Assembly (NCBI GenBank): GCA_001600175.1
Contig: BCJC01000004.1
Location: 1,302,001-1,366,000 of the forward strand
Source of the DNA: Erythrobasidium yunnanense
Lineage: Eukaryota > Basidiomycota > Cystobasidiomycetes > Erythrobasidiales > Erythrobasidiaceae
Reading direction: 5' to 3'
DNA: 64,000 nt
Under the pieces are notes generated by a model that saw nothing but the letters and a program-made list of their open reading frames with translations, did not search any database and was not told the origin of the DNA. Every line of letters starts with the position of its first letter. The first letter of the stretch is position 1. Made by a program: the position numbers and the translations under genes. This document shows, piece after piece, positions 3 through 27,966 of the stretch.

Positions 3-1307
3 GACAAGAAGTGGTACTCCGCAATGGAAATGACTACTCATTACAAGCCGATGGCGATCACAGACACGGCTTCATGCCCGCTCATATTCAGAATCAACAC
101 CTCGTCAGAACAAATTCAGAGAAGGCTATGCCTTTCCGAGGCCGTAAATTGATACACCACCGCTCGCTCAACGGTAGATCCCGATATACCGACCCAAGAA
201 CGGCACAGACTGCGCCCAAACTTCCGTAAGTCCAAGCTTGCTTTACGAAAACGCAGCATATGAGCCTGTGCTGAGATTCTCAATACCAGTGCCCTCTTGA
301 CTACCTATCATCCGCTTGTCATCGAAGCTCACTTCTCCATCCTCTTGAACAATCTCTTGATGGGCGATTTCCGAGGTCTTCTCCGACAGCACTACCGCAT
401 CTCGCGCCTCATGGAGTACTTAGAAGGGTATCCAATCTTTGTTCCCGCCCGTTCTCTCAACCAATCTCAGTATGCAGAAGTGATGGAGCTTCTATCCTCT
501 TCATGGGCGAATGCACGAGAAAAAACATCTGGAATACCAGCACCCGATCTCTCGTCGTCAGAAGATGAATTACTGGCTCAAGGCCCACTGCCGAGCTTGC
601 ATCACCTCGTCGGGTACTTTACGGAACAACATGCTACGCGTCTTGAAGAGGCTGCTCTACAAGCCGAGAAAGACTATGCTGCATACACATCTGCAGCTAT
701 CAAAGCTAGAAGAGAAGCTGCCGCAGCTGCCGCCGCCAGTAGTGGGTCTAAGACATCTTCAAGGACGAAGTCGGAGCTGGAGAAGCGGATCTTAGAAGAA
801 GCAGAAAGAGAAGTAGAGGATATTCAAAGAGCTCATGAGAGCGCTTCTGCTGCTCAGCAACAGAAACTGCTAGAAGCGCCGACGTACAACACCGCAAGAG
901 CAGAAGTCGCACTAGCTTGGCTCAATGTAGCGATCTTACCGGATCTGATCGCTGAGGAAAAGGAAGAGATCGCACAGAGACAAGGTGCTGGTAACGGTGA
1001 AGATCATAAAGCTGGGTCATCGTCTGCTTCGGCTGCAGGCGGGCTCAAGACGGGCAGCAGTGCTTCGAAATCGAGATCGGAGAGCCCGTTGAACGGCAGC
1101 AGCGCTCTCTCGCCGGGAGTAGCTGGTATCAACCTGAATGGCGTATCAAGCGGTAAGGGCAAAGGGAAAGCAGCTGCATCGCCCAGCTTTGCGGATCCGA
1201 TCGCAAGAGTCAGCAGTAAAGGGAAGGGCAAAGGCCGGTCGATAGAGAATGATGATTCACCTCCGTCTGTTGGATCTAGCGTAGGCAGCAGCTTGTCTGC
1301 TTGGTAG
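3..1307 (+). CDS. Unrecognised protein, 3' part only, alanine/serine-rich tail
   Basis: The gene runs in from the left edge, so its start is missing. Best model: exons 3-143, 209-225 (17 nt) and 290-1307. Summed length is 1176 nt, or 391 residues plus stop, with GT..AG at both introns. The first ~130 visible residues look globular (segments such as SCPLIFRINTSSEQIQR and VIEAHFSILLNNLLMGDF). A helical, probably coiled-coil stretch rich in Ala, Glu and Lys follows. The last ~110 residues are Ser/Gly/Lys low complexity with repeated KGKGK blocks, probably disordered. No family was recognised. An alternative reads through 11-225 in another frame, but that codon use and residue mix look poorer. 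The C-terminal exon is secure; the joins upstream are inferred. Confidence 0.6.
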
Positions 1308-4745: not shown

Positions 4746-7592
4746 CTACGATCCTCTAATAAATGACTCATCCATCTTGATCTGCCATTCTCCAAGTGGT
4801 TTCTCCTTATAAGCTGGTCCTAAAGCTTCCACCCTTCTCCCGCCAACTTGCTCATACGATCGCCGAAGCATCGCCATCTCGTCATCATGAAGGTCTTCCA
4901 GCTCGTTCGTAGGGAACTCATCTAGACGTATCCGCTTCCGCACCCTCATGCCATTCACAATCTGTATCTCGGACGACACCAGCGGTTCAGGCGTTGCCGT
5001 CCTTGATGCCTGTCCTCGTTTACTTTCGAAGTAGCCATTGGCCGTCACGGCTTTTGCAGAGCCTGTCACACCAGGCGAAGGCATCGCTAGAAAAGCCGGA
5101 ATAGCTTCTTCTCTCCCAGGCTCGAGAATGCGCGTAGCTCTCTCTGTCCGGAACCTAGTATCGCTGTCTTGATTCTCTGTATCTGATAGATCAGAGCTGA
5201 CAGAAGACAGCTCGCCTTCCGAATCAAAGAGATCTTCGGCAACCTTTGCTGCTGTGGCAGTGAGGACAGCTTTCCGTTGCAAAGTTGTGTTTGCGCCATT
5301 GATGTTGGAGAGGTTGAGAGGTGGGGGACGGAATTGACGAGGTGGACGACGATTCTTGTCGGCCTGTCGTAGTCCTGGTACCGGTGTACTTTGCCGAGTC
5401 GAAGGTGCTCGAGACAAGCGCGCAGAGAGAGCGCCTGTGCGTCCTGTAGTACCAGGAGCACGCTCTATGAGTATCTTCGGTAATGAAGGAGGCTTGTCAA
5501 GCTTCTTCTGCACGGGTGCTTTCGTGATGATCGGAGGAGCAGATTGAGGTACCGTTATTCCCTTCGCTGACACGATGTCCGCTGGAAGAGCTGATATAGG
5601 CGAGAACTCTTGTTGTGTATCGATAGCCAATGCAGGCAGCTTGTGCCCGAAGGCGAAAGTCGTAAGAGCACCAGCTGGGATCGCGAAGCCTGGTGTCGCG
5701 GGGCTCCGCGGCGGTATAGGAGTAGTAGGCGAGTCTGCTTGCACAGCAGCATGAGCTGCTGCAGCTGTACGGAAGAACGAGTCTTTGATAGTTGGTGGGC
5801 CACGATAGTCCCAGTATTTGGCCCTCTCTTCTTTGGTCATTGGCGTATTACGCTTTCTCAATTGCATCGACCGGCCTATAGCACCATTGTCTGTATCTCC
5901 ATCGTCTGCTTCCGATTGTGTGCTCGCTCCAGGAGGTAAGTGGCCGTTGGGGAATAAGCCCAGATATGGGCCAAACCCATTACCGTACGTATATTCGTCC
6001 AAGAATTCCTTGGACGCATTCATCAACGCAAGAGCTTCCTTTGCACCATCATCATCCTCAGATTCATTCCCTCTCCGCCTCCTCCGTCTTTTATGGATTG
6101 GCGACCCGTCAGGACCCATCTGAGCTGAAGACGCCCCATCCGACTGTGGCTGCGCTGCATATGCAGTATTCACATTCGATAGAGGTACTGTACTGCTGGG
6201 ACGACCTGCATTGCGGGTTCTTCGGGTTGTCATGCTGGATGACGTAGAGGTGTTCGGGATAGCTGTGTGAGGGTGCCTCTCACCATTGACCGATAGCCCT
6301 TTATGCTCATACGCAGGCTTAATATCGTTACTAGGTCGAGGCGCGATGGCGACCCAGGTAGGCGGAGCAGAGGAGATAGCCGGCTTTTCGGAAACCGAGG
6401 GTGGGTTGCGGCGAAGAGGTTTGATTGTGATGCTGAGGTTGCTGGATGTCTTTGGAAGATTGTTGGTTCTGCCAGCTGACGATGAGGTTTTAGAGAGGGA
6501 AGTGGAATAAGCCGGAGGAAGGCTTGAGATTGCTGGTGAGGCCGACCGAGACTTTGGTGCACTCGAAGTCGATGGTTCCGCTGAGCGAGCTGCTGCTAGC
6601 TTGCGCTGAGCATTCGTGAGTGGCGCTGCTGAGGTACTGGGTTGAGCAGCTGGATTTCGAAGGTACTCGTCTGCAGAGATGCCAGGCGGGGTAGGCGGGA
6701 TCCCTGGTGATCAAGTCAAAAATTAGCGAGATTTCTTCAGCCACAGAAGCATACGGACTCGCCTTTGCCTCCAGTAGTCCACATGTGCGCTCCACTGCCC
6801 CATTCTATCGTATCGTTCTCCCGCCAGTGACCAAAGTACCTGCAAGCCGCATGGGTCCTGCTGGGCTCGAGAAGCTCTTCGTAGCGCCTGAGCGTATCCT
6901 CTGTCTGTTGTAGTTGCTTCTTCTTGAGTCTCTCCGTCTCCTTGAGCTTCTCGCTGCTGACTGGAACAGCTGTTTTGGGCACCCCTTTGAGCGGGCTCGC
7001 TGAGGCGTAGTATGCGACGGAGGCGAGTTCCGACTTGAGATGCTCGTACTGTGTACGTAGCTTATTCCTATCCTGTATCAAGCGGTCTCTCTCCTGCTTG
7101 CGTCCCCGTTTCTCGAGCGTTTCTCCAGCGAGATGCCTTCGAGCGTAATACTCGTCGCTGAAGTCCCGCTGATGCCCAGGCTCCGCTGTCGTCTTGACCC
7201 TTGGTAGCTCGCCATACGCTATAGGTCTGCTCTCGGGCACCTCTATCAAAGCTTGCAGGCCTATAGGGAGCTCTGGAGTTTCGAACAGCGTGACGAGTGG
7301 AGGAGGATCGGTAGTGAGCAGGAGGCCAGTAGTACGAGGAAGGAGAGCGTCTGTGAGATGACAGCTTCAGTCTTCCGGCGCCATAACACACAGAGACAGC
7401 CTTTCCCTCCTCCGACCTACCTTCATCGTCTGCTTCGTCTCCCGAATTGGCAGCATCTTTCACAGGGTTAGTAGAGCGTGTACTACGACGTTGCTGCTGG
7501 ACAGGCTGCTGCAACATCGCGTCGCCGTCGCCGTCGTTGACGCTTTCGTCTGCTCGTTGCTTTCCTTTGGATTTTGACGACAGCTCGTTCAT
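4746..7592 (-). CDS. Large nuclear protein with a PEHE/SAS4-like segment; possible histone acetyltransferase subunit
   Basis: Best model on the minus strand: exons 7592-7421, 7350-6769 and 6703-4746, 2712 nt or 903 residues. After a charged start (KSKGKQRADESVND) comes a segment with IEVPESRPIAYGELP, then RDFSDEYYARRHLAGE and a basic Glu/Arg helix. This order (VP.xR, D-x-S-D-E-x-Y-x-x-RH, charged helix) is what I know from the PEHE region of MSL1/KANSL1 and the fungal Sas4 subunit, which contact MYST acetyltransferases. The middle and C-terminus are Ser/Pro/Thr-rich, with a basic KRRRRRR patch, LRKRNTPMTKEERAKYWDYR and a final QIKMDESFIRGS. Family assignment is inference from motif shape. The second intron has no good GT donor in the right phase; a GC..AG intron at 6704-6768 solves the frame. 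Confidence 0.6.
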
Positions 7593-8264
7593 GATGGGCA
7601 GGATCTTGCGGGCAGGATGGCAGATGCAGACGTAGGATAGGCTCAGACGTCAAGTACGTCAAGTAGATGGGCCATCTTCCAGGCAGACTCAGTCAAGTCG
7701 AGCAATCGCGTTGGCTGCTGCGCGAAGAGCAGCAAGTCCCAGAAACATAGGCGGCAAATGACAGCAGATAACGACAAGGCGCCGTCGCACAAGTCATACC
7801 CAGCATACATTTTCGGTATAACATTCAATCAGTTTAACCCGTGCTGGTTTGGCTATCTCTGAGGATGCGAGTAGCGAGCGCAATGGCACAACTTTTCCAG
7901 AATCTGCGATGCACACTTGGAGGGACATGAGGACAATATTATACCTACATGTGCGCCTGTATGAGATACTTCAAGCTACAGGAAAGCGCAAAAAGCGCAA
8001 TCATCGCAACAGCCCGACCTGGCTAGGCGATACTTACGGTACGGTACACGCCAACGCTGATGATCTTTGCCATGTATGCTGACAGCTACTAACTTACTGA
8101 AGAACATTGGCATTATGATGCCTAGGAAGTGATGGCTGCTTGGCAATAGGAACATCTGCTATGATAAACTACTTCAATCTGATGACATCGGCACGATCAA
8201 AAGGCCGAAAAGGCACTTCGGTAACCGGATACTGTATCTCTTTCCTTTCCTTTCATATCACAAT
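7593..8264. other. Intergenic, divergent promoter region
   Basis: 672 bp between the start of the PEHE-like gene (minus) and the first secreted paralogue (plus). Short ORFs here show no recognisable protein and no intron logic. The only notable item is the block at 8181-8214, which is repeated upstream of the second paralogue. Confidence 0.6.
8181..8214 (+). promoter_or_regulatory. Upstream block shared with the second secreted paralogue (copy 1)
   Basis: The block contains GATCAAAAGGCCGAAAAG and lies 51 bp before the start codon at 8265. A near copy (CATCAAAAGACCGAGAAG) lies at 9770-9802, 80 bp before the start of the paralogue at 9883. The flanks agree too (GATGACATCGG against CATGACTTCGG). 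The surrounding non-coding DNA is not obviously alike, so this is either conserved promoter sequence or a remnant of the duplication. Confidence 0.5.
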
Positions 8265-9244
8265 ATGCTCAAGATACTCGCGTACGGCCTATTTACAACC
8301 TGGACGTTGTTGGCTCGCGCCGCACCCTTCCCTCAAGCAACCCTAAGTCCCGCCTCCGGTATGCTGCCTGTTCCAAAGATGTTCGAGCCGTTCTGATCAC
8401 CAACGCAGTCTCTTCTATAGATGGTTCCCCTGCCACTGTAACACCTACGCCAACATCAGCGCCGAGGACCGATCTCGTCACGTTCTCCGGTGTAGAGGTC
8501 ACAAGTCCTACGGAATGGAACCTCTTAGCTGGGAATGCAAGAGTCAACGGTGCAAACATTGCGCTGACTCGCTCCGATACAACGTTTTTGGCCCGTCTCA
8601 AGACTGATCCTGCACGACAAGCCGGTGGTCTAGGCGGAACGCCTACAACCGTAACAAATGCGGGTGAGTCGTCATTGTTCACGTAGCACGATACAGGCTG
8701 ACAATGTATCTGTAATGTCAGAGGGCTTTGACGTATCCCCTACCCACCTGGCTCTCGTCGCGGTTGATCCCAGTCTACCAGACGCGCTAGAATTGGGTTA
8801 CTCTTGTGACGTGCAAGGTACTCAGCTCAACTGCACTATTGTGAGGCGATCTATCCCCAAGGTGCAGGATGTCCAATATCCTGATGTACAGCTACTCGTT
8901 TTCTCCATTAGATCGGCTACTCTTCAAACACCACAGATATTATCGCCGTGTATTCTGCACTCTATGAAGTCGCACCCACCGAAGTCACTGCAGCCCCCGC
9001 TCCGACCGGTCAAGCCTTGAATGCTATCGTCAACAATGAGCAATTGGCCGACTTATTCGCATCTGCTTTCAGTCGCGTCGAGAGCGATGCTGCAACTGCG
9101 AGTGCTACGGCAGATTGGATATCCTACAGATCGGCTATCCAGTCCAGCTTGGCGCAAAGTGCATCGTCCTACTTTGAATCTCTGCGGACTGCAGAGACTG
9201 CCGCGAGCGCAAGCAGTACAGTCCAGCCGATGAGCGCGGCCTGA
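8265..9244 (+). CDS. Unrecognised secreted protein, tandem copy 1
   Basis: Exons 8265-8358, 8409-8663, 8722-8840 and 8912-9244 sum to 801 nt (266 residues). A signal peptide is clear: MLKILAYGLFTTWTLLARAA, cleaved near APFPQ. The mature protein begins Ser/Thr/Pro-rich, then has a globular part with VTFSGVEVTSP, LTRSDTTFLARL, VSPTHLALVAVDP and YSCDVQGTQLNCTI. The two cysteines there are the only ones in the mature chain and may form a disulfide. VYSALYEVAPTEV follows. The C-terminal ~90 residues are Ala/Ser-rich and helical. No GPI site or catalytic motif was recognised. Its neighbour at 9883 is a paralogue with the same intron positions and phases (1, 1, 0). Function unknown; a wall-associated or host-contact protein is possible but unsupported. 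Confidence 0.85.
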
Positions 9245-9882
9245 GCGAAGTCAACTGCTATCTCTACATTGTAGGATGTCAGTATACCGAAGCAAATGTC
9301 ATTATCTTCATACAAAGTAAGCGTAGGACCTACCCAGCCGTGTGTCAGTTTCAAGTAATATCGCCGTCTTAACCCTGTATCTGGAATCAGTGTATACAGC
9401 ATGCTTCGAATACTTACATCGTATTTAGCCGCTACTGCTCTGCCCTCTTTGGTATTTCATACAGTATCCGATCTTCGTTGCTTTCCTTTCGTCTCTTGTT
9501 TACTTGAGACCGCTCGATTACAACGGACTCCGACAACGCTTCCTTAATGCAGGGTGTGTGAAGCTGCCAAACGTTAAGTGTATGCGCCCATCGTCACACC
9601 TTGTGTGTGGCTTCGCTTACACAAACTGGCGGACTTTACTGCAAGGCCTGCTAAAGGATGTCATATGAAGTACAGGCCTTTTGGCATCCTTCACAAGAAA
9701 CCTTAGTCCTTTACATGCTGTCTGGACAGACAGGCTCTAAGGCTTGATATGGCAGGCACAGGCTCACCTCATGACTTCGGCATCATCAAAAGACCGAGAA
9801 GCTACCGATCCTTGCAGACCTTATTTAGATCTCGAGAAAACATCTTCTTTTCTTCTTCCTCTCACTTTCGGACCACACCAAC
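9245..9882. other. Intergenic spacer between the tandem secreted genes
   Basis: 638 bp holding the 3' region of copy 1 and the promoter of copy 2. The shared block at 9770-9802 is the only recognisable element. A pyrimidine-rich tract (9845-9866) precedes the start codon of copy 2, as is common before fungal start sites. Confidence 0.6.
9770..9802 (+). promoter_or_regulatory. Upstream block shared with the first secreted paralogue (copy 2)
   Basis: Contains CATCAAAAGACCGAGAAG; the partner is at 8181-8214. Same orientation and a similar distance to the start codon. Confidence 0.5.
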
Positions 9883-10858
9883 ATGTTGCGACTTCTCACG
9901 ATTACCGTCTTGGCGGGTGCCTGGTCAGCGAATGCTATCCCCTTCCCACAAGCAACATCTGGTCCCGCGTCTGGTCTGTTGCGCTTTCTCGCTGATAGGG
10001 TTGCCACATCTAAAGCTCAGGGCAGGCTCTTCAGAGACCCTCCTCACTTCCGGCACAGCTACGCCAACATCAGCCCCGAGCACCGATAACATCACCTTCA
10101 CGGGTGTCGAGGTCACAAACCCACCTTATCAGAGTCTTTTGGCTGCAAACACATTATTCGAGGGCTCCAACATTGCCATTGTCCGCTCCGATACCACCTT
10201 CCTTGCGCGAATCGGGACCTTCACAGGTTACAATGGTCCTGCTCCGACTGCACTACCGACTACTGTCACAAATGCTGGTGCGTTACTAATTCGCGAGTTC
10301 TACGCCCGCCTGACACTTCTACGCACGTGCAGAGGCGTTTGAAGTCTCTCCCACGCACCTTGAGATTGTCATGCTGGATCCGGCTTCACCTGATGCCCTT
10401 GTGGAGGGATATTCATGCGACGTACAGGATACCACGCTCAATTGCACGATTGTGAGGCGCTTGCCTTTCTGAGCGTCTTCTAGAAGGCTGATATCTGCTC
10501 CCTTGCTTTCAATGCCGGTGAATAGATTGACTATACTGCAAACACGACAGAAATCGCTACTGTCTACTCCGCCATCTATTCAGTCGTACCGACCGAGGTC
10601 ATGGCGCCTGTAGCCCCTTCCAGTCAAGTCTTGAACGCAGCAATCGACAACGATCAGCTGGCTACACTCTTTAGCTCGGCCTTCAGTCGCATCGAGAAAG
10701 ACGCTGCCACTGCAACACCTACCGTCGACTACGTATCAGTGATTGAGAGCCTACAATCTAGCTTGGAAGCGGCACAGTCATCGGTATTCGAGTCTCTTCG
10801 GACTGCAGCGCCGACACAAAGTGCAAGTAGCTCAGCTGCACCCACAGGTACTGCTTGA
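9883..10858 (+). CDS. Unrecognised secreted protein, tandem copy 2
   Basis: Exons 9883-9973, 10026-10277, 10333-10451 and 10526-10858 sum to 795 nt (264 residues). The signal peptide MLRLLTITVLAGAWSANA is followed by IPFPQ, as in copy 1. Shared segments are ITFTGVEVTNP, VRSDTTFLARI, VSPTHLEIVMLDP, YSCDVQDTTLNCTI, VYSAIYSVVPTEV and FSRIEKDAATA. Introns lie at the same three places in the same phases. Exon 3 (119 nt) and exon 4 (333 nt) are the same length in both copies, while exons 1 and 2 differ by three bases each. Several NxT/S sequons suggest N-glycosylation. The pair arose by tandem duplication and has since diverged strongly in the exon-2 linker. Function unknown. Confidence 0.85.
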
Positions 10859-16314: not shown

Positions 16315-16928
16315 ATCTCTACGTACATAGGTGAAGCAGCTACGGTCTCATCCCACGCTGTCTAAATCGACGGAATCTCCGGGGAAGCGGCTGACACCGG
16401 GATGTCACGCAAAGTGTATCTAGATAAGGGTTTTATTATGGATAGCACAAGGCGCTAGCAAAAGGACACAACTATGTCGACCTTATTATGGATTGTCGAG
16501 CTCTCTTGCTTACCCATTCTTCCCTTGCATTCTTCGGGCGCATAGCATACTGCTAGCTTCACATACATTGTAGCATTACTTGACATTTTCTGGCGAACGC
16601 AGTCTCGCGAACTTGGCCAAGATCCGCATGACCTGGCGCTTCTGAATCTGAAAGAACAGTCGCAAACAGCACCAGAACCGAGCAGAGATAGCATTACATG
16701 TCATCAAGAGCTGTGTTATAGAGATCATTCAGCAGACAGGCGTTCTCCAAAGCCAGGAATCCGAAGACAAGAACGGATGATCGCGCAGTCAAATGTCAAG
16801 ATTCGACGGGTAGCGTCGTTCTGAGGCCTACAAACTACAGCTGAGTGGTAGTCTTACACCATGCCCCTCACCTTCGCTACCCGAAGAGGCAACCTGAACT
16901 GGTAAGCCAACGCCCGTAACTACGCAAT
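16315..16928. other. Intergenic region and possible first exon of CSF1
   Basis: About 600 bp between the lipase stop and the CSF1 reading frame. An ATG at 16861 opens MPLTFATRRGNLN and is followed by a donor-like GGTAAGCC. The only acceptor before the CSF1 frame gives the wrong phase and a 36-nt intron, so I did not join it. A minus-strand ORF at 16455-16694 has no family features. Confidence 0.5.
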
Positions 16929-19900
16929 GTGCGCCAGCTCATGCATTGGCCTAGGCTATGGCTTCTGGAAGTGATTGTCATCGTAGTGGTGGTCCTCTTC
17001 TACCTCTTCTACTTCAGCCGGACCTTCGCTTCTCTGATTTCTACGATCCTACGACCCATTCTTTGGCGAAAGTATCGGATATACCTCGAGATAGGCAGCA
17101 TACAGTTCTCTCCTCTCGGTGGACGACTCCTATTTCGAGATGTCGTCTACGTCGGCGAGAATGAAACTATCAAGATTACGATGGGTCACATAACATGGAG
17201 ATATTGGCTATGGAAGGTCAGGCAAGAAGAGGATTTAGTCAAAGAAGATGTCAAGACGCCTTGTCGCACATCAATTAGCGTCGAAGGCCTGGAGTGGTTC
17301 ATCTACAATAGGACCAGTGCATTTGATCTCCTGCTTGAGCGTTTGGGTCACAAAGAACAGCAGGGAAAGCGGGGCCCACATAGACAGGACAAGAAGGATT
17401 CCAATATGCATGCAACTGATGGAGGTAGCTCGTCGAACGACACAGGTTCGATCGGGGAAATACCGCAACCAAGCGAAGTTCGCACAGAGCAGGGTAGGCC
17501 GCAACCGCTCTGGAAACGAAACATAAGACTAATCACCTTCGTATCTCTTTGTCAGGCGGATGCGGCGAGATAGACTGGTATAGGGAGACATTTCCGATCG
17601 AGATCCAAGTGGTTCGAGGTGCATTGGTAATGGGTAACAGAAGTACTCCCTCGCTCCTAGTCGCAGGCTTTCGGTCAGCGAGTGGGACCTGCGGAGTCGT
17701 TGATTCTCGGTCGAAATACGACCTCTACAAGCAGATCTACCAATTCACGTTCGACAAACCGCGCATAGTCTTCCGCAAGAATCATGATTACGAAGCATCC
17801 CTCACAGAGTATGGCCAGCACCTAGAGCAGCGCAAGAAGGAAACATTGTTCGTACTTGTTCAATCAGCCTGGCGCACCCAAGCTAATTCTAGCACCTCTT
17901 TGGCTTCTGCAGCGGAATCGATCCTCGTCCAGACAGGCAGACTCTCGAGTTCACCTACTTTCAAGATTTCTTAAAGAGAATAGGCACATTTGCCGACCGG
18001 GTGTATAGTATGAGGCCTTACAAAGACCCAGTCAAAGAAGCATGGCATGGTTTAGCTCGCTACAGAGCAGCAGCTGGCGCACTGTACCTCGAGGATGACC
18101 CGCCCCATGCTGCACCATCGGAAATCCAATATGGCAAGGTTTCGACAATTTACGATAATGGCGAATCGATCAACTTGACATACTATGCAGACGTAGCAGG
18201 CTTCGTTCCTGATATCTCGGGCAACGATAAGCGGCGCGTATTGCCAGTCTTCGAGAAGCCAGACATCGGGAATGGAGATCTGGCGCCTGAGTGGGGTATA
18301 GACATATGCCTCAATGGCGGAACCCTCACTTACGGTCCCTGGTCTGATCGACAACGGTGAGCCAGCTCAACCATGGACGCTAAATGCCTTCTACTTACGT
18401 TTCGGTGTGCATTAGGGCCGACATCCAGAAGGCATTCTTCCCTCCAGCCTACTTCACAACACAGCCTACGCTACGACTGAAGCCGGGAGACCGGCGGTTA
18501 CATGCAGCGCTCAAGATATTCCTCGACTTCTCTCAGACCACCACATTTCGCCTGCCAACACGTGAAGCTTCCAAAGATTGGCGCTACGATGGTTTGGCCG
18601 ACAGCATGTCGTTCATCGACTTAGAACAGCGCCCATACGGCTGGCTAGACGTGAAGCTTGGCTCCGAGTCTTCAGTCAACTTCGTGATGCCTATGATCGC
18701 AGATGAGAATGGTTACGATACATTGCTCGAAGTACACTTGGACGACATACTCGTTTCATCTAGCGTCAATTATGAAAAGTTCTTTAAGGCCAAGTTATGT
18801 AGACTTACTTGTCAGCTGCCAGCTCCATTGGCCTGGGATAGTCTGCACACCTGGCTCATCAATGTTCACCTCGACAAGCCCGATCTCTTCCTCCTACGCG
18901 ATCATACCTATTTACTCGTCGACATAGTTCGAGACTGGACATCTGGACCACCAGCCGATTTCGAGCAATTCATGCCATTCATATACAAGCTAAACCTCAC
19001 CTTTACGGATCTTAATTTGTACTTATATCTGAACGAGTAAGCTGTTTGTCCGGCAAGCTGCATCTGTGCTGCAAAGGCTAACTGCCTCTTCACAGGCAAA
19101 ACATTGTTAATAATGCAGCGGCCAGCGACGACAACAGTAAGTCAGGTCTATTCTGAGGGACTTCTCCAATAGTGATAACATTGTCGCAATTCAGCCCTGC
19201 TGCTCATTACTGGCAAGCGAGTGCAGGCTGTCATCGACCTGCCCTTGACGGTGTACAAAGCCCCAGCCTCTACGCTATTTGTAAAGGTCGAGACGGATGA
19301 CGTCGAACTCTCAATGCTTCCGCCGGCCTCAAATACGCACGAAGGTTTCAAGACCTCCCGGACGAAAACTTTTGCCAAGCTGGACACCATGCACCTCGCT
19401 ATACAGCATACGGTCAACGCTGTAACCCATCCAGACAACGTTGAAACGCTCGATATTAGCATACAACTAGACGGAATCATGTTTCAATTGCTAGGCTGGG
19501 TCATCAAGTACATCATAAGTGTCAAGGAGAACTACTTCGGTGACCATTCCCACTTTGTAAGCTCAGTCCCGAACAACGACCTGCTATACTAAATCGACGC
19601 ACGTGCAGGTTACGCTAGAAGAGTTCCGCTACAAGCACAGTGTTCAGCGACCCGGGGACCCATTAGAGCAGAAGTACAGACCGGGAAAGGCATGGTGACA
19701 TTCATGACCTCTTTTGAAGTGTGTGTTGCTAATTCTGCCGGAACAGTCTGACGTCTTCGAGGTCACCTTGGATGTCTCTGCCACGCGATCCGTGGCGTTA
19801 CTGCCTCAAGAAATCTACGACTGCCAATCGGCTCTAGCCTTAGAGCTCCCAGAGTTCGGGGTACATCTGCGAAATCATGACTACTTTATGGGTACGGATA

Positions 19901-22900
19901 TATAAGCGGGCACAATCCAGCAGTACTGACAAATTGGATGCGCAGAACTCGGCGTCGATGTCGATCCTATCACTCTGGCTTTCGTTTCCGATTGTGAATC
20001 TATCATTCAGACCGGATCACTTGCGCCACATGATACGTCTACGCGCCCACTTATACTTGACGGCCTTTCCATCAATTCGCATCGACTTTTCGGTCCTCAG
20101 CCTAGAACCGCAGTCTATGTAGCGATATGGGAGTTTCACCTTGGCCCGCTCGTCGGGGATCTTTCCATCCCCCAAATAAGCGCTCTGCAGCGTGTTGCCC
20201 AAGCATTTGCAGTCAACTTCAAAGATAGCGACAACTCGCTTTCCGACGACTATGCCATCCCAACAGATCCGGACGTCACTATCCTTTCTGTCACTATGGA
20301 ATCACTAGAGGTCAACGTATGGAGCAAGAGTACTGTCGTGAATATCACTCTGCAGCAGGGTCTGTCATTAAAGCTCGATGATCATGCCGGAGATGGATGG
20401 TTGTCGCACATAGACATCGACGTACCGGACCTCGAGTTGAAAGGCTTGGTTCCAGTGGATGAGACAGAGCAGGAATACCTTGAGGTCGTAGCGTTATCGG
20501 CCGGTGCCGGTATAGGCCTGGGAAAGACTGCCCAAGATTGGGAGGCCAAGATGCACAAACAGCGGAAATTCCTGGCGGATCAAGATGCTTCTACGCAGAG
20601 GTGTGTTTTCCTGTACGACAAACAGGGAAGTGACCATAGTATGTCCACCTTCTCATCATCTACATCGAATACGACTCAGGCAAATTTCTCTACAGATTCC
20701 GTTTCGTTAACGTCCCTGCACCTTCCCAAACTTCATCCTGGCGAGATGCTTGGGACACAGCATATCGACCCGCCTCACACTACCGGTACCGCAGACCGCA
20801 CCTTCCAGCGCTTACATGGTCAGCACGATGTGTACGTGCCGCGAAGCCGGGTCGAAAGCTCCCGTAGTGCGTATCCATCCTCTATGGTATGGTAAAGGGC
20901 TAAAGCGTGTATTTGTGCAGGCCGCCGGACTATGAGCACGACTGCATCAGGCGAGAGTGTCATGGCAACATATAGCTCACTGCTACGAAGATTCTATCGC
21001 ATGGCTGACGACACTGCTTACATGGCGCTCGATGGTCCCTCCTTCAGCCCAGGGAAGCCCGTGAGTTCCGCAGGCTGTGATATGAATGTAAGACAAAAGG
21101 CTGAATCGTTTACGTCCACAGACAGAGAGCGGCAGCCTGCCCGTAGCAGGCACTCGAAACGCAAGCGGCAAGAATCGCATTAGATCAGACAGCAGCGCTT
21201 ATCGACCACAGTCGCATGGTGAAGTCCTCACCTGCATAGACATCAACTGCTACAAGCTCGTCAAAGGTGTATGTTCACCTTCCGCCGTGCGTATTGCTTC
21301 GGACATCATCGCGACGCTAGAGAAGGTACGAGCTATGCGCCTAGCCACTTTCATGCCTCTAATTCGTGCTCTTCTCAGAACGATAATCCTGAACACTGGC
21401 TCGACGCGGCTGAACTCGAATATAGAGGACGTGCAGGCGACACCGAGGCAGACAGTACTTTCACATCGATTCGCGTGACAAGCAGCTTGGAGGGCATCAA
21501 TTTGACCCTGATACAAGACATTCTACGTCCTGGCGACATTGACATGGCAGAACATCTGGAGAGCGCAACCCATCAAGATTCTGCAATCCTGTCAACTAGC
21601 TTGTTGACGTTGCGGAAGATTGATGCTTCCTTCTTGCAAGTTACGGCTTCTGCATCGCAATTCCGATTTGGTTCCAGTCGAGCACAGGCTGTCCAGCAGA
21701 AGATGTCCGTATCCACAGGAAAAGGTCGTCTTCAAGTCAGGCATGTATCAAGGGCGAACTCGAAAGTATCGCGACCACCTATCTCTGGTCTGCCGCCTGC
21801 CTTCCATGGGGCAGTGCTCGATGTCAGCATGCAAAGCATGACAGGGGACTTGTTCCTGTCCGAGGAACTATGCAAAGGCGCTATAGAATTTGGCAACAGC
21901 TCCCTGGATTTCGCCTCCTCCGCAGCCGAACTCGTCACGGGTACTGTCCATTCGTGGTTCATAGTATCCCGTCACATCGAAATAGCGGTCTTGAAAGCGC
22001 AGTACCGCATCTTACCACGATATCGGAGGCTCTTCACAGACATCCTAAGATATTCGCAAGATCAAGGCATAAGTACAGATCCCTTCTTCCTCAATAGGCC
22101 CACTATCATGCCAATCAGCACAAGAGCCGACTTGAGCTGGAAAGTTCTGGCTCATATCCGGCACAACCTTCGACAACTCCGTCCGGAAGCAATCTCGAAT
22201 TTGCGAAACGATCTCTTACGAAATGTCCATTCGGTATCCGAGCAAGATTTCCGCATTGTCGTGCCTCTTCTGCAGGAATGGCACAGCTGGGAGTTGGACC
22301 CTCAGACTATTCGCTCCTTAACCATCTTCGCGTACTTGTTCCCACGTCAGGCAAATACGTCAGCTGTGCGAAAGCAGCAAAAAGGTCCGATGATCAGTTG
22401 GGACACCTCCTTCCAATTCAGCATTACATCGGGTCTCTTCAAGGTTTTGCACTACGATAACGCACGCTGCAGCAATCAACTCCATCTGACTCCAAACGAG
22501 ATCTTTGCAGCCTATACTGGCCGTACTCTTGCAAAACGAGCAGGAGAAGGCAGGATTATCCTGCGACTCCAAATAGGAGCACTAGTAGCAGAGCTCGAGC
22601 CTAGCTTTGTACAGCTAGTGCGGCATGTCGGAAGAGTCAGGCGAACGTTCGAGGAGAAGCTGGCCCCTCTGATTCCCCGACCTCGCGTTACGGACTATCA
22701 AAGCACCCCTGTTGAGGTAGCTTCCACGGTGGACATTCGCTATGCCCCTCCAGCATCGCTGCCTATCGACATAACAATGTTCATGCTCGGCATCGATGTT
22801 TCAACCCGCGTTCGTGATGTAAGGGCTTCTCTAGCTCTTCAGAGCTTACACAGCAACCTTTCGACCAAGGCCCTTACTCAATCTGGCGAAACTACAATAG

Positions 22901-25900
22901 CGCTCGATGGGCAGGTATTTGTCGGCTGCGATGCCATTCGTTTCCTTTCCGCGACCGAGAAGACTTCGCAGCCCTTGTCAACAGCTCTATCTGGGAGCAC
23001 ACTCATATCAATCCAATTGCAAGATGTCCATTTGTGCTCTGCACTGACGGCAGATGCTAGTAAACAGCACATTCTGGCTGTCACGGGCGTTCTCGGTAGC
23101 AGTCGTGTGCGAGTGCCAAGAAGTGTGCTCAGAATGTCGCAATTGTGAGTCATGCACACTTTCTTCACCAGCAGCACTTGCTTACCTCACGCACAGTATC
23201 GATAATTGGAAGACGGACTCGCTTCCACAGTCAAAGATAGCGTTTGAGGAGCTGAGGCGGGATCTGGAAACCGCTCGCCCCACAGTAGTCGCTGCGCAGA
23301 CATCGACGAAGAGGCCTCTTGTAGAGCTTCCCGGCAGTATACGTATGAAGGCCAATCTCCTGATCCCGCTGGTGAATTTCCACATTCGTGCAGCCTCAAA
23401 ATTCTGGCTGGACTACACAATAAGCGACATACTACTGGAAGGCAATTCGTCGCTCATCAAGCAGCGCGACGTTATCATGTCCGCCGGTCTTCACGTAGGC
23501 ACCCAAACAATTGCCTTTGTAGCGGTCAACGAAGCTGCGAAGCAAGGGGAAAGTACGCCGTTCGAGGGTCAGACAATCAAGTTACCAGCCTTCAACGGGC
23601 GTGCAAAAGTAGCCAGACGCCATGTCGAGGTCATCGCTAGTCTAGAACGCATCGACATCACTCTCACGGCAGATACCTTGGACAATGTTTTGGCTGTACA
23701 GTCTCGTTTCGAACAAGACATCGACGAACTCCTCTTCGTTTTGGCCCAGCGTAAAGCTCGTAGAAACGATGCTCACGAGTCGGAAAAGAAGCCTATAGTG
23801 CAGACTCTTCCCTCGGATCTCACCTGGAACGCACAAATTGCGTTGCGGGGTCTCAACCTGGGTCTGAGGGGACCCTTAGCTACGCAATATATAGGTGCCG
23901 ACCTGGTCGAAGGATACGTTTCGCAGATGGATGCTAAAGCGCCCGGCAAAATTACCTGGGAGGCCAATGCGCTGAACCTTGGTGCTTCCCTTGCCAGGCG
24001 AAGGACAGGGCATTCCGACAAATCACATCGTGACTTCCGCCTGGCATATTTCCTTCTTGATGTGCAAGCTGGCAACGTTATAACGGAGGTCTACGAGTTG
24101 CCGCATCTGAGCGACAGTGTAGACACCACGCACTTGCATATTAGACTACCCAAGATTCATGCAGTGATGCAAACAGCTACCATAGAGACGCTCGACGAAC
24201 TGATAGAACACTGTCAGTTCAATCTCAGGAGATCGCGCATCAATCGCTGACTTTGCATCTGCAGTCTCCACCGAGATCAGCCGCCGAAAAGAGGCTAGAG
24301 CCAAGGAACTTCGCGCTATCAAAGCACGCGTCATACAAACTTTCGATATTCCCGAAAAGCCCTCTGCCCCCAATGTACTTCCCTGGATCGAACGCTGCGT
24401 GCTGTCTCTTCGGGTGGGCAATATTGGCATAGTCGTACCTCTGGCGGACCATGAAATCACAGTGCCGGAAGCCGACCTCCATTCTTATGAAAGAACTCAT
24501 CCCGCATTCATGGTATCGTCAACGTCTCTAATCTTTGCCACCTCGAAGGGTAAAGCAGGCTTTGCCAAGATGGCAGACCTCTCGGCTCAATTCGTCAAGC
24601 AATTCGATCAAACTCAGATCTCGCATTTCTCAGGCCTTCATCATCGCAGCCAGAATCGTCTAACATTCCCATCAGCCGAAATAACCATTTCGTCCGATAG
24701 GGTGGCTACGACCCGCAAGAAGGCATTCACAGTGCAAGCCCACATGTCCGGTGCAGAGTTGGATATTGACGCGGGCATTGTCAGAGCTGTCTTCTCGCTT
24801 GTTGATCTGTACGAGGCCGGATATCAGCGGCTCGGAAGGCATGCGCCAGACCCAGCTGTATTGAAAGCACAGCTCAAGGAAGGAGTCCAGACCAATATTG
24901 AAGCGCCAGAAGATTACACGTCATTCATCGAAACCACTACATTTGAGGCCGCTTTTGCGGTCGACTCAGGCATTATAAACATGCACAACACGCTCGATCC
25001 CGGCGATACAGCTTCAAGCGATGAAAAGCAAGGCAAAGCCCTCAAAGCGCATCATGACCTCGGCAGCACGCGGGGCAGAAAACGTACAACCGCAGACCGG
25101 AACCGCAACTACGACGGCTCAGCCTCCCTGCCGCCCGACAGTTTCGTCATTCCCAAATTCTCAATGTGGGCTGCAAAGCGCGAGGCCTCCAAGACTGGGG
25201 ATGACAACGCTATACATCTCGATGCAGTCATCCATCCGAGTAGAAATACCTTGTACCCCACTCTCCTTCCTTTCTTGTCTGATCTTTCAGACGCCATCAA
25301 AGACCGATTACAGCGCCAGAGTTCAGTGGTCACCCGACCGGGTACTCCAGCAGACCAGCGCGATGACGGAATTATCAGTGTCCAATCTAGAGTCAACACG
25401 GAGCTGGACATTGGCAATCCTATTTCAGCTTTGCGTAAGCTCCGGATAAGCTTTAGCTTGCGTATCGACAAGTCGCGCCTGGAAATCAGCTGCTTGCAAG
25501 CAGCTCAAGTGTCTGCAATATTGAATTGGCAAAGCGGGGGCCTGATAGTTACAGTGGAGCCGGGTAGTCGAAAGGCGCAAGTTGCTATTCGCGTGGACGA
25601 AGTGAACTTTGATCTCAAGCACACATAGTAAGTCGCGTACTTCAACGGCAGCCTCGCACAAATCGCTTACATTCATCTTCCAGCTCCCCAGAAAAGTGTT
25701 TGGGCGGCTCCGTTCAAGGTCTCATCCTGGCGGTATCGTTCGGACCGCAATCAGATTCGCACTCACATCTCTCAGTCAACTTCCGCGCATCGAGCATCGC
25801 TGGGGAAGTCAATTTTCGACAACTCCACGACTTCCTTTGCTTTAAAGCCGTGTGGCTGGATCGCCTTGAAAATCTCGTTCCGGTCCCTCATCAGACAGAG

Positions 25901-27510
25901 ACCGACTACGAGAGTGCTCTGGCCCCGCCGGCGAAGTCTCAATCAACGACTCTCATTACTACATTTATCGTGCACCTTGACGAACTGCGCTTTACGTGCA
26001 TTCTTGGCTCAAACATCGGTACAGTCGATTTGTCCGCTACTGCTCTGGTCGGCAGAGTACGCCTCGTACCTTTGGAGTCTCGGGCTCTCAGCGTGGACCT
26101 CAAGAAGTTCAGTGCAGTGTCCAAAGGACGTCTATCTGGTAGCTTTACTACCAACGGTTTGTACTTCGAGAACAGCTATCGTGATCCGAAAGGTCCTGTC
26201 GCGTCTCAGGCTAAGAATCTAGTCAAGCTCAGCGCTTGGGTAGGAGCAATGGATGCATTTCTCGAATTCGACTATCGACGCGTGCTCTTGGTCCGCTCCG
26301 ACCCTATCCAGATAGGCGCTACAGACGATTGGAAAGACGTCATGGAACAGCAAATCCTACACCTGAACTTCTGGCTGCGCTTTGGCGGACTCAGAGTCAT
26401 CCTTACAACTCAAACGGTACCTACACTAGTGCGGCTGGCTACAGATGTTGGCAAGCTTATTGAAGATCGCTCTATAAAAGCTAGGAATACTCTCTTCGGG
26501 CTCGAGACTTACCTGGCGACGCCTGCGCCGAGAGCAAAGCTACAATGGGCAGCTGCCAGTGCAGCCTGGAAACAGAAGCGGACTGTCCCTTCTATGATCC
26601 CCGAAGGCGTACGGGTCGCCAGTACGATCCATCTTGAAGCAGAACGACTTCGACTTGCGATCTTCCTACATCACTTTACGGATGCAGAAGCATTCAGAGG
26701 TGATGCAGGAGCCGTACGAGCGCATCTTGAGCGAGGCGTCGACGAGTCCAGCACCGTCGCTAGGGATCTAAATCTCCATCTAGGCTTCTTTACGATCCGC
26801 AAGTTACGGCCAAAGAAAGTCAGCCCCTTGCAAGAACGCGACTTCACACTGGAGGACTGGTTCGAGGTGCTAGGAGCGGCTTCGGAGCGGAACATCGTGC
26901 AGATACCTACTAGTGAAGCCAAGATGACCAGTACACAGAAAGAGCACAGCAACCAGCTCTACCATCGCTTCACTCTTGCGTTCACGGGACAGGTCGACAT
27001 ATCACTCAACTATGCTCTGCTTAAGCAATTAGGCGATCTACTCAATGCTTATCAAGAAGGCATGAAGCGTAATGAACAAAGAGGGCATAGCCGAACGGCT
27101 CCTCCGACGCCTAGTATCGAATCCAATGCAGTCACGCCTGCATTCACCAGCGGCGATGACCAAGATCAACCCAACAAGCAGATCGGCGCCGAGAAGGTGC
27201 CTGCTCCGCCTTCTATCGCGGTCATTCAGTCCTTAGAGTATATAGCTCTCGAGAATAACATACAACAACCGCAACTCCAGTTGCTTGGAGATGGCGAGTC
27301 CGAATCTACAATCTATTGTCACCCTGAAAGCAGGCTGATCCAATTCTCTCTACAGCTACTCCACCTATGGAATGGCTCGGTGTACAAAGAGGACACTTCC
27401 CAGGCTGGGTGCACGGGGGTGTCACGACCATACTGGAACAAATGCTCTTGGAACTCACGGCCGTGTACAAGAGGAGTCTGGCTCACGGCGCAGCCGTTCA
27501 GAACTGCTAG
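16929..27510 (+). CDS. CSF1: Csf1, bridge-like lipid transfer protein
   Basis: Giant membrane-anchored protein of the Csf1/tweek/KIAA1109 (BLTP1) family, which moves bulk lipid between ER and other membranes at contact sites. It is split by at least a dozen short introns. N-terminal anchor: LLEVIVIVVVVLFYLFYFSR. Next come the family's chorein-like start (IYLEIGSIQFSPLGGRLLFR, ETIKITMGHITWRYW) and the landmarks YGPWSDRQR, FPPAYFTTQPTLRLKPGDRR and FRLPTREASKDWRYDG. The main open blocks are 18001-18360, 18412-19040, 21271-23148, 23199-24200, 24399-25628 and 25700-27293. The end is GDATPPMEWLGVQRGHFPGW followed by LEQMLLELTAVYKRS and a stop at 27508-27510, as in other Csf1 proteins. The last intron (27294-27355) is GC..AG. 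The first residues are uncertain. Confidence 0.9.
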
Positions 27511-27966
27511 AACACTATTCTATCAGACTTTTCTCTCTCTCTCTCTCTTCCCGCCTGATCTCATCTGTATATTTTCTGTATTCCCTCCGTCATCGTAAAC
27601 CTAAGCATCCTAATTAGAGAAGTGCTCGATGCTCTGTACGAATAGTCACTGTGTTGTTGCTTAGTAGTACGCACCGTCTGAATTGGCATGCACTGAGAGA
27701 AGAAGTAGAAGATGGGATTGTCGCAGTGTGAAGGCAAAGAGTGCTTCGTGTTTCTTTCTAATCGTGAACATCGTTACGCTTATCGAAAGCTAATCCCTAC
27801 ACAGCATCTCTACTATGACACAGTTCTACAGGATCTTGTATCTAAGGTATCGTTACTAACGTGAGAGGGAGAAGAGAGAGAAGATATGCACAAGTGATGA
27901 TACAACGACTGCACTGAACGTAAATTATCACCGAAATTACTGCTTTACTGCTTTAGGAAAGGCTAG
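27511..27966. other. Convergent 3' intergenic region
   Basis: 456 bp between the stops of CSF1 (plus) and the VTT-domain gene (minus). It holds a (CT)8 run at 27533-27548 and otherwise nothing recognisable. Confidence 0.6.
27533..27548. repeat. (CT)8 dinucleotide microsatellite
   Basis: Eight perfect CT units in the 3' region of CSF1. Confidence 0.85.

What the first reader, a model, noticed from the sequence alone, without database searches (positions are those of the whole stretch)
8265..10858. Tandem pair of unrecognised secreted proteins with identical exon architecture
Seen: two adjacent same-strand genes, 266 and 264 residues, both with signal peptides. They share YSCDVQ-x-T-x-LNCTI, DTTFLAR, VSPTHL and VYSA-x-Y-x-V-x-PTEV. 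Intron positions and phases (1, 1, 0) are the same, and exons 3 and 4 are equal in length (119 and 333 nt). Only two mature cysteines are kept. I know no family with this signature. Strong divergence of the Ser/Thr/Pro linkers against a conserved core suggests a secreted protein under changing selection. This is the best candidate here for something undescribed.
Basis: partly seen in the sequence, partly recalled or inferred. Interest (0 to 1): 0.7.

Follow-up and report, generated by a model that had tools for sequence, protein, structure and literature searches.

The report
Duplicated fungal secreted protein genes
Two neighbouring fungal genes, an old duplicate pair under purifying selection, encode small proteins that look secreted and match no family in the libraries searched; proteins of this kind are common in fungi, so this is ordinary apart from a shared stretch in front of both genes that suggests common control.

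Summary
Genes A (8265-9244, 266 aa) and B (9883-10858, 264 aa) have the stated exons, phases 1, 1, 0, motifs and single cysteine pair. They are 57% identical. dN/dS is 0.16 with saturated dS: an old duplication of coding genes under purifying selection. The claimed divergence of Ser/Thr/Pro linkers fails: the linker is as conserved as the core (20 of 33 against 77 of 129 columns); a 16-residue loop is the freest part (2 of 16). No relative passed a threshold in Pfam or PDB sequences, and no third copy was found in the 20.9 Mb genome. No fungal protein collection was on hand, so orphan status is untested. A Kre9/KNH-like origin is not supported by Pfam; my profile comparison had no power. New here: a 31-bp stretch upstream of both genes (26 of 31 identical, 0 of 300 shuffle pairs as good); its 17-bp core occurs without mismatch only at these two genes. 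Most likely an ordinary, co-regulated pair of lineage-restricted secreted glycoproteins. Exon-wise fold models were uninformative.

The parts
8182..8212 (+). conserved upstream stretch of gene A (26 of 31 identical to that of gene B), ending 52 nt before the ATG
   Evidence: ungapped score 16, maximum of 300 dinucleotide-shuffle pairs 12; the 25-base form occurs with 0 mismatches only at A and B, plus two places with 3 mismatches
8265..8358 (+). gene A exon 1 (signal-peptide-like N-terminus)
8409..8663 (+). gene A exon 2 (Ser/Thr/Pro linker, first part of core, variable loop 95-110)
8722..8840 (+). gene A exon 3 (second part of core, both cysteines)
8912..9244 (+). gene A exon 4 (end of core, C-terminal part, stop)
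   Evidence: helices suggested only at low confidence
9771..9801 (+). conserved upstream stretch of gene B, ending 81 nt before the ATG
9883..9973 (+). gene B exon 1
10026..10277 (+). gene B exon 2
10333..10451 (+). gene B exon 3 (both cysteines)
10526..10858 (+). gene B exon 4

Best explanation
An old tandem duplication of a lineage-restricted small secreted glycoprotein, both copies kept by purifying selection and probably switched on together through a shared upstream site. Shown: exon anatomy, homology, purifying selection, no third copy found in the genome, conserved upstream stretch. Inferred: secretion by the classical pathway, N-glycosylation at two conserved sequons, one disulphide closing a ten-residue loop, a helical C-terminal part, restriction to a lineage, and a role as an extracellular or cell-wall-associated surface protein rather than an enzyme.
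For: Same exon and intron anatomy and dN/dS 0.16; hydrophobic N-termini (mean hydropathy of the first 18 residues 1.04 and 1.19) followed by A-x-A type cleavage sites (read by eye); computed pI about 4.1, two N-x-S/T sites at matching places and exactly two cysteines; no enzyme family above a cut-off; no third genomic copy found (the tool calls its counts lower bounds); 31-bp upstream stretch whose 17-bp core occurs with 0 mismatches only at the two genes. The start of the abstract of PMC7105643 (search listing only) says that most small secreted proteins of fungi are coded by orphan genes.
Against: No signal-peptide predictor, transcript or proteomic data. Codon adaptation to an hsp70 gene (A 0.386, B 0.415) is little above that of ten other open frames of the window (0.319-0.410; A exceeds 8 of 10, B 10 of 10) and far from the hsp70 itself (0.705, inflated as it is its own reference and its end runs past the exon), which gives no sign of a very abundant wall protein. 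Fold models of exons 4 and 2 have mean pLDDT 44.8 and 41.2, so structural inferences rest on sequence pattern only.
Confidence: 0.6

Rival explanations
1. Partner-directed effector pair: secreted proteins that act on another organism.
For: Small, secreted-looking, no known domain, tandem copies with one fast loop (residues 95-110, 2 of 16 identical, dN 1.43, dS 1.61).
Against: Whole-gene ratio 0.16; two cysteines only; no third copy found; of 20 neighbouring open frames scanned, five pass a Pfam cut-off and four of these belong to housekeeping-type genes (two pieces of Csf1, a VTT-domain gene, a SMUBP-2-type helicase), the fifth being a GMC oxidoreductase; the locus lies inside a 2.29 Mb contig. 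The nearest neighbours on both sides have no match above a cut-off, so the context argument is weak.
Confidence: 0.2
2. A strongly diverged Kre9/KNH-like cell-wall domain (PF10342) followed by a helical tail.
For: Resemblance recalled by eye only: a last strand of the type N-x-T-[DE]-I-x-x-V-Y-S-A-x-Y-x-V after a stretch that looks beta-rich.
Against: No Pfam match for either core at E up to 10, while two proteins of the same genome score 4.1e-7 and 5.3e-12 for PF10342. The profile comparison found nothing, but it is no evidence: the two true members did not find each other by it either.
Confidence: 0.12
3. Remnant or relative of a glycoside hydrolase of family GH46.
For: Weak Pfam match of A, residues 152-221, E 0.057.
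Against: 13.5 bits against a cut-off of 27; absent from B; it covers 70 of 210 profile positions. The scan in parts cuts through this stretch and so does not test it.
Confidence: 0.01

Closest known systems
Small secreted proteins (SSPs) of fungi without known domain
   Same: Under 300 residues, hydrophobic N-terminus, no Pfam domain; these traits as given in the abstract of PMC7105643 (search listing)
   Different: No difference in kind was shown; particular to this pair are the shared four-exon anatomy, only two cysteines and the conserved upstream stretch
Kre9/KNH-like N-terminal domain proteins (PF10342)
   Same: Secreted-looking, Ser/Thr-rich; the same genome has members
   Different: No Pfam match of either core; an extra C-terminal part

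Membership tests
Small secreted protein (general class) | shorter than 300 residues | tested here: met
   266 and 264 aa
Small secreted protein (general class) | signal peptide | tested here: inconclusive
   hydropathy and A-x-A site by eye; no predictor run
Small secreted protein (general class) | no known domain (usual, not obligatory) | tested here: met
   Pfam; PDB sequences; no match above a cut-off
Kre9/KNH-like (PF10342) | match to the domain profile | tested here: not met
   with a member of the same genome as positive control in that call and a second; the hhalign test lacked power
Kre9/KNH-like (PF10342) | Ig-like beta sandwich | not testable with these tools
GH46 | profile match above the curated cut-off | tested here: not met
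   13.5 bits against 27 in A, none in B
Partner-directed effector | induction in or action on a partner organism | not testable with these tools
   no expression data

The most novel reading that the evidence does not exclude
The pair founds an undescribed secreted protein family of this fungal lineage with its own fold (a core closed by one ten-residue disulphide loop plus a helical C-terminal part) and a dedicated upstream control site used by these two genes alone.
Probability: 0.3. Interest if true: 0.35.

Novelty: new member of a known kind. Interest (0 to 1): 0.2.

Why it matters
If the family is truly undescribed it adds one more lineage-restricted secreted protein to a class said to make up 40-60% of fungal secretomes (abstract of PMC7105643, search listing). 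The more testable point is the 31-bp stretch kept in front of two copies whose synonymous sites are saturated: it predicts common regulation and gives a handle on when the proteins are used.

Tried and rejected
Kre9/KNH-like origin (recalled resemblance): Pfam gives no match for the two cores though two proteins of this genome pass the cut-off. A profile comparison with these two found nothing above 0.2% probability, but a control made on checking showed that they do not find each other either (0.1%), while A and B do (100%); so one search counts for nothing, and I raised this rival from 0.08 to 0.12. In the genome search with PF10342 both stood below the cut-off (20.3 and 20.1 bits against 24.6) because introns cut them.

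GH46 rejected as below cut-off and in A only. Internal duplication of the core: nothing found (0.2% probability), by the same insensitive method. Third genomic match at C6 (E 0.58): its frame runs antisense to a longer open frame and B does not find it; treated as chance. The 25-base upstream form has two more places with 3 mismatches: L017 lies within the body of what I read by eye as a transporter gene; L016 was not read. The one 1-mismatch place of the 17-base core (L027) has, among nine open frames of 90 or more residues, none that I recognised by eye as secreted. The 250-nt 3' flanks share nothing beyond chance (72 of 100 shuffle pairs reach the score).

Relatives elsewhere: viral contigs (55 pattern places), prokaryote genomes and plasmids, none confirmed; fungal orthologues would not be expected there. 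In one search one of the two patterns spans intron 3, so that scan rested on the other. ncbifam, phrogs and padloc were not searched. Exon folds were too poor for a fold search, and none was run.

Organism: the only 5.8S match is a fragment beside an hsp70 gene; small-subunit searches gave no answer. A basidiomycete yeast near Cystobasidium is a guess from the recalled look of the 5.8S stretch and from size and G+C: 20.9 Mb and 0.49-0.54 per 2 kb of the window, against 20.99 Mb and 48.8% for C. onofrii (PMC10422843, passages) and 21.5 Mb and 50.1% for C. tubakii (PMC9584199, whole text). The verdict does not depend on it. Passages of PMC12866564 and PMC8355462, and two listings, gave nothing on these genes.

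Full report
Observation. The two gene models stand. Gene A uses exons 8265-8358, 8409-8663, 8722-8840 and 8912-9244 and gives 266 residues; gene B uses 9883-9973, 10026-10277, 10333-10451 and 10526-10858 and gives 264. All six introns are GT..AG, 50-74 nt long, with phases 1, 1, 0 in both genes; exons 3 and 4 are 119 and 333 nt in both. The quoted motifs and the single pair of cysteines are there. The proteins are 57% identical. No transcript was available to prove the junctions; intron 1 of A has a second possible acceptor.

Selection. Counting by Nei and Gojobori over 263 aligned codons gives dN 0.354, dS 2.21 and a ratio of 0.16; dS is saturated, so the duplication is old and the ratio rough. 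The stretch has the higher ratio (0.42 against 0.15) only because its dS is low (0.63); its dN (0.26) is below that of the core (0.32). What varies most is one loop (95-110, 2 of 16, ratio 0.89 on 16 codons), the signal peptide (6 of 21) and the tail (6 of 16). Introns keep 21 of 30, 29 of 55 and 32 of 67 ungapped columns in a gap-tolerant alignment.

Relatives. In the own genome (20.9 Mb, 10 contigs) three protein searches found no third copy (the tool states that its counts are lower bounds); the one extra weak match (E 0.58) is discounted. Pfam gives nothing for B and only a GH46 match below the cut-off for A; cores and tails scanned apart give nothing but a herpesvirus model at E 1.1 for the tail of A. 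PDB sequences give nothing below E 0.34. Viral contigs, prokaryote genomes and plasmids give nothing, as expected for a fungal gene. No fungal protein collection was available, so 'orphan' is not shown.

Upstream stretch. The 300 nt before the two start codons share one stretch, 8182-8212 and 9771-9801, identical at 26 of 31 positions without gaps; its score of 16 was reached in none of 300 dinucleotide-shuffle pairs (maximum 12), while the 3' flanks show nothing. In the whole genome the 25-base form occurs without mismatch only at these two places, with two more at 3 mismatches; the 17-base core occurs without mismatch only here, with one more at 1 mismatch; the backward-read control gave none in either search. 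Since synonymous sites are saturated, survival of this stretch points to selection, most simply a shared regulatory site. That last step is inferred.

Structure. Neither is usable. A resemblance to Kre9/KNH domains that I recalled was tested with Pfam: one member in this genome scores 4.1e-7 and another 5.3e-12, the two cores score nothing. A profile-profile comparison also found nothing, but the control shows that it would have missed true members, so a very diverged relative is not excluded.

Context. Of 57 open frames of 150 or more residues in the window, 20 were scanned with Pfam. Five pass a cut-off: two pieces of a Csf1 gene, a VTT-domain gene, a SMUBP-2-type helicase and a GMC oxidoreductase. 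The nearest neighbours on either side have no match above a cut-off (a PEHE match of 21.5 bits against 34 upstream). The locus lies at about 1.31 Mb of a 2.29 Mb contig. Codon adaptation to hsp70 is 0.386 and 0.415, against 0.319-0.410 for ten other frames. I saw no sign of an effector cluster, though most neighbours were not examined.

Verdict. A correct observation of an ordinary kind of thing: an old tandem pair of small secreted-looking proteins, probably co-regulated, with an extracellular or wall role inferred. Interest 0.2.

Noticed in passing
8182-8212 and 9771-9801: 31-bp stretch conserved upstream of both genes; its 17-base core is found without mismatch only at these two places in the genome.
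   Followed up: yes
L007:1501-1625 (G000:C1:4391638-4391762): The only 5.8S rRNA match found in the assembly is a partial one (model positions 40-154) upstream of an hsp70 gene; no other RNA family matched in the 9.9 kb around it.
   Followed up: partly
L007, about 290-1100, minus strand: Read by eye, a further secreted-looking Ser/Thr/Pro-rich protein seems to be encoded beside the 5.8S fragment.
   Followed up: no
16920-27595: Pieces of a long multi-exon Csf1 gene on the + strand: two open frames above the Csf1_N cut-off, three more with matches below the cut-off.
   Followed up: no
6740-7366, minus strand: PEHE-domain match below the cut-off (21.5 bits against 34).
   Followed up: no
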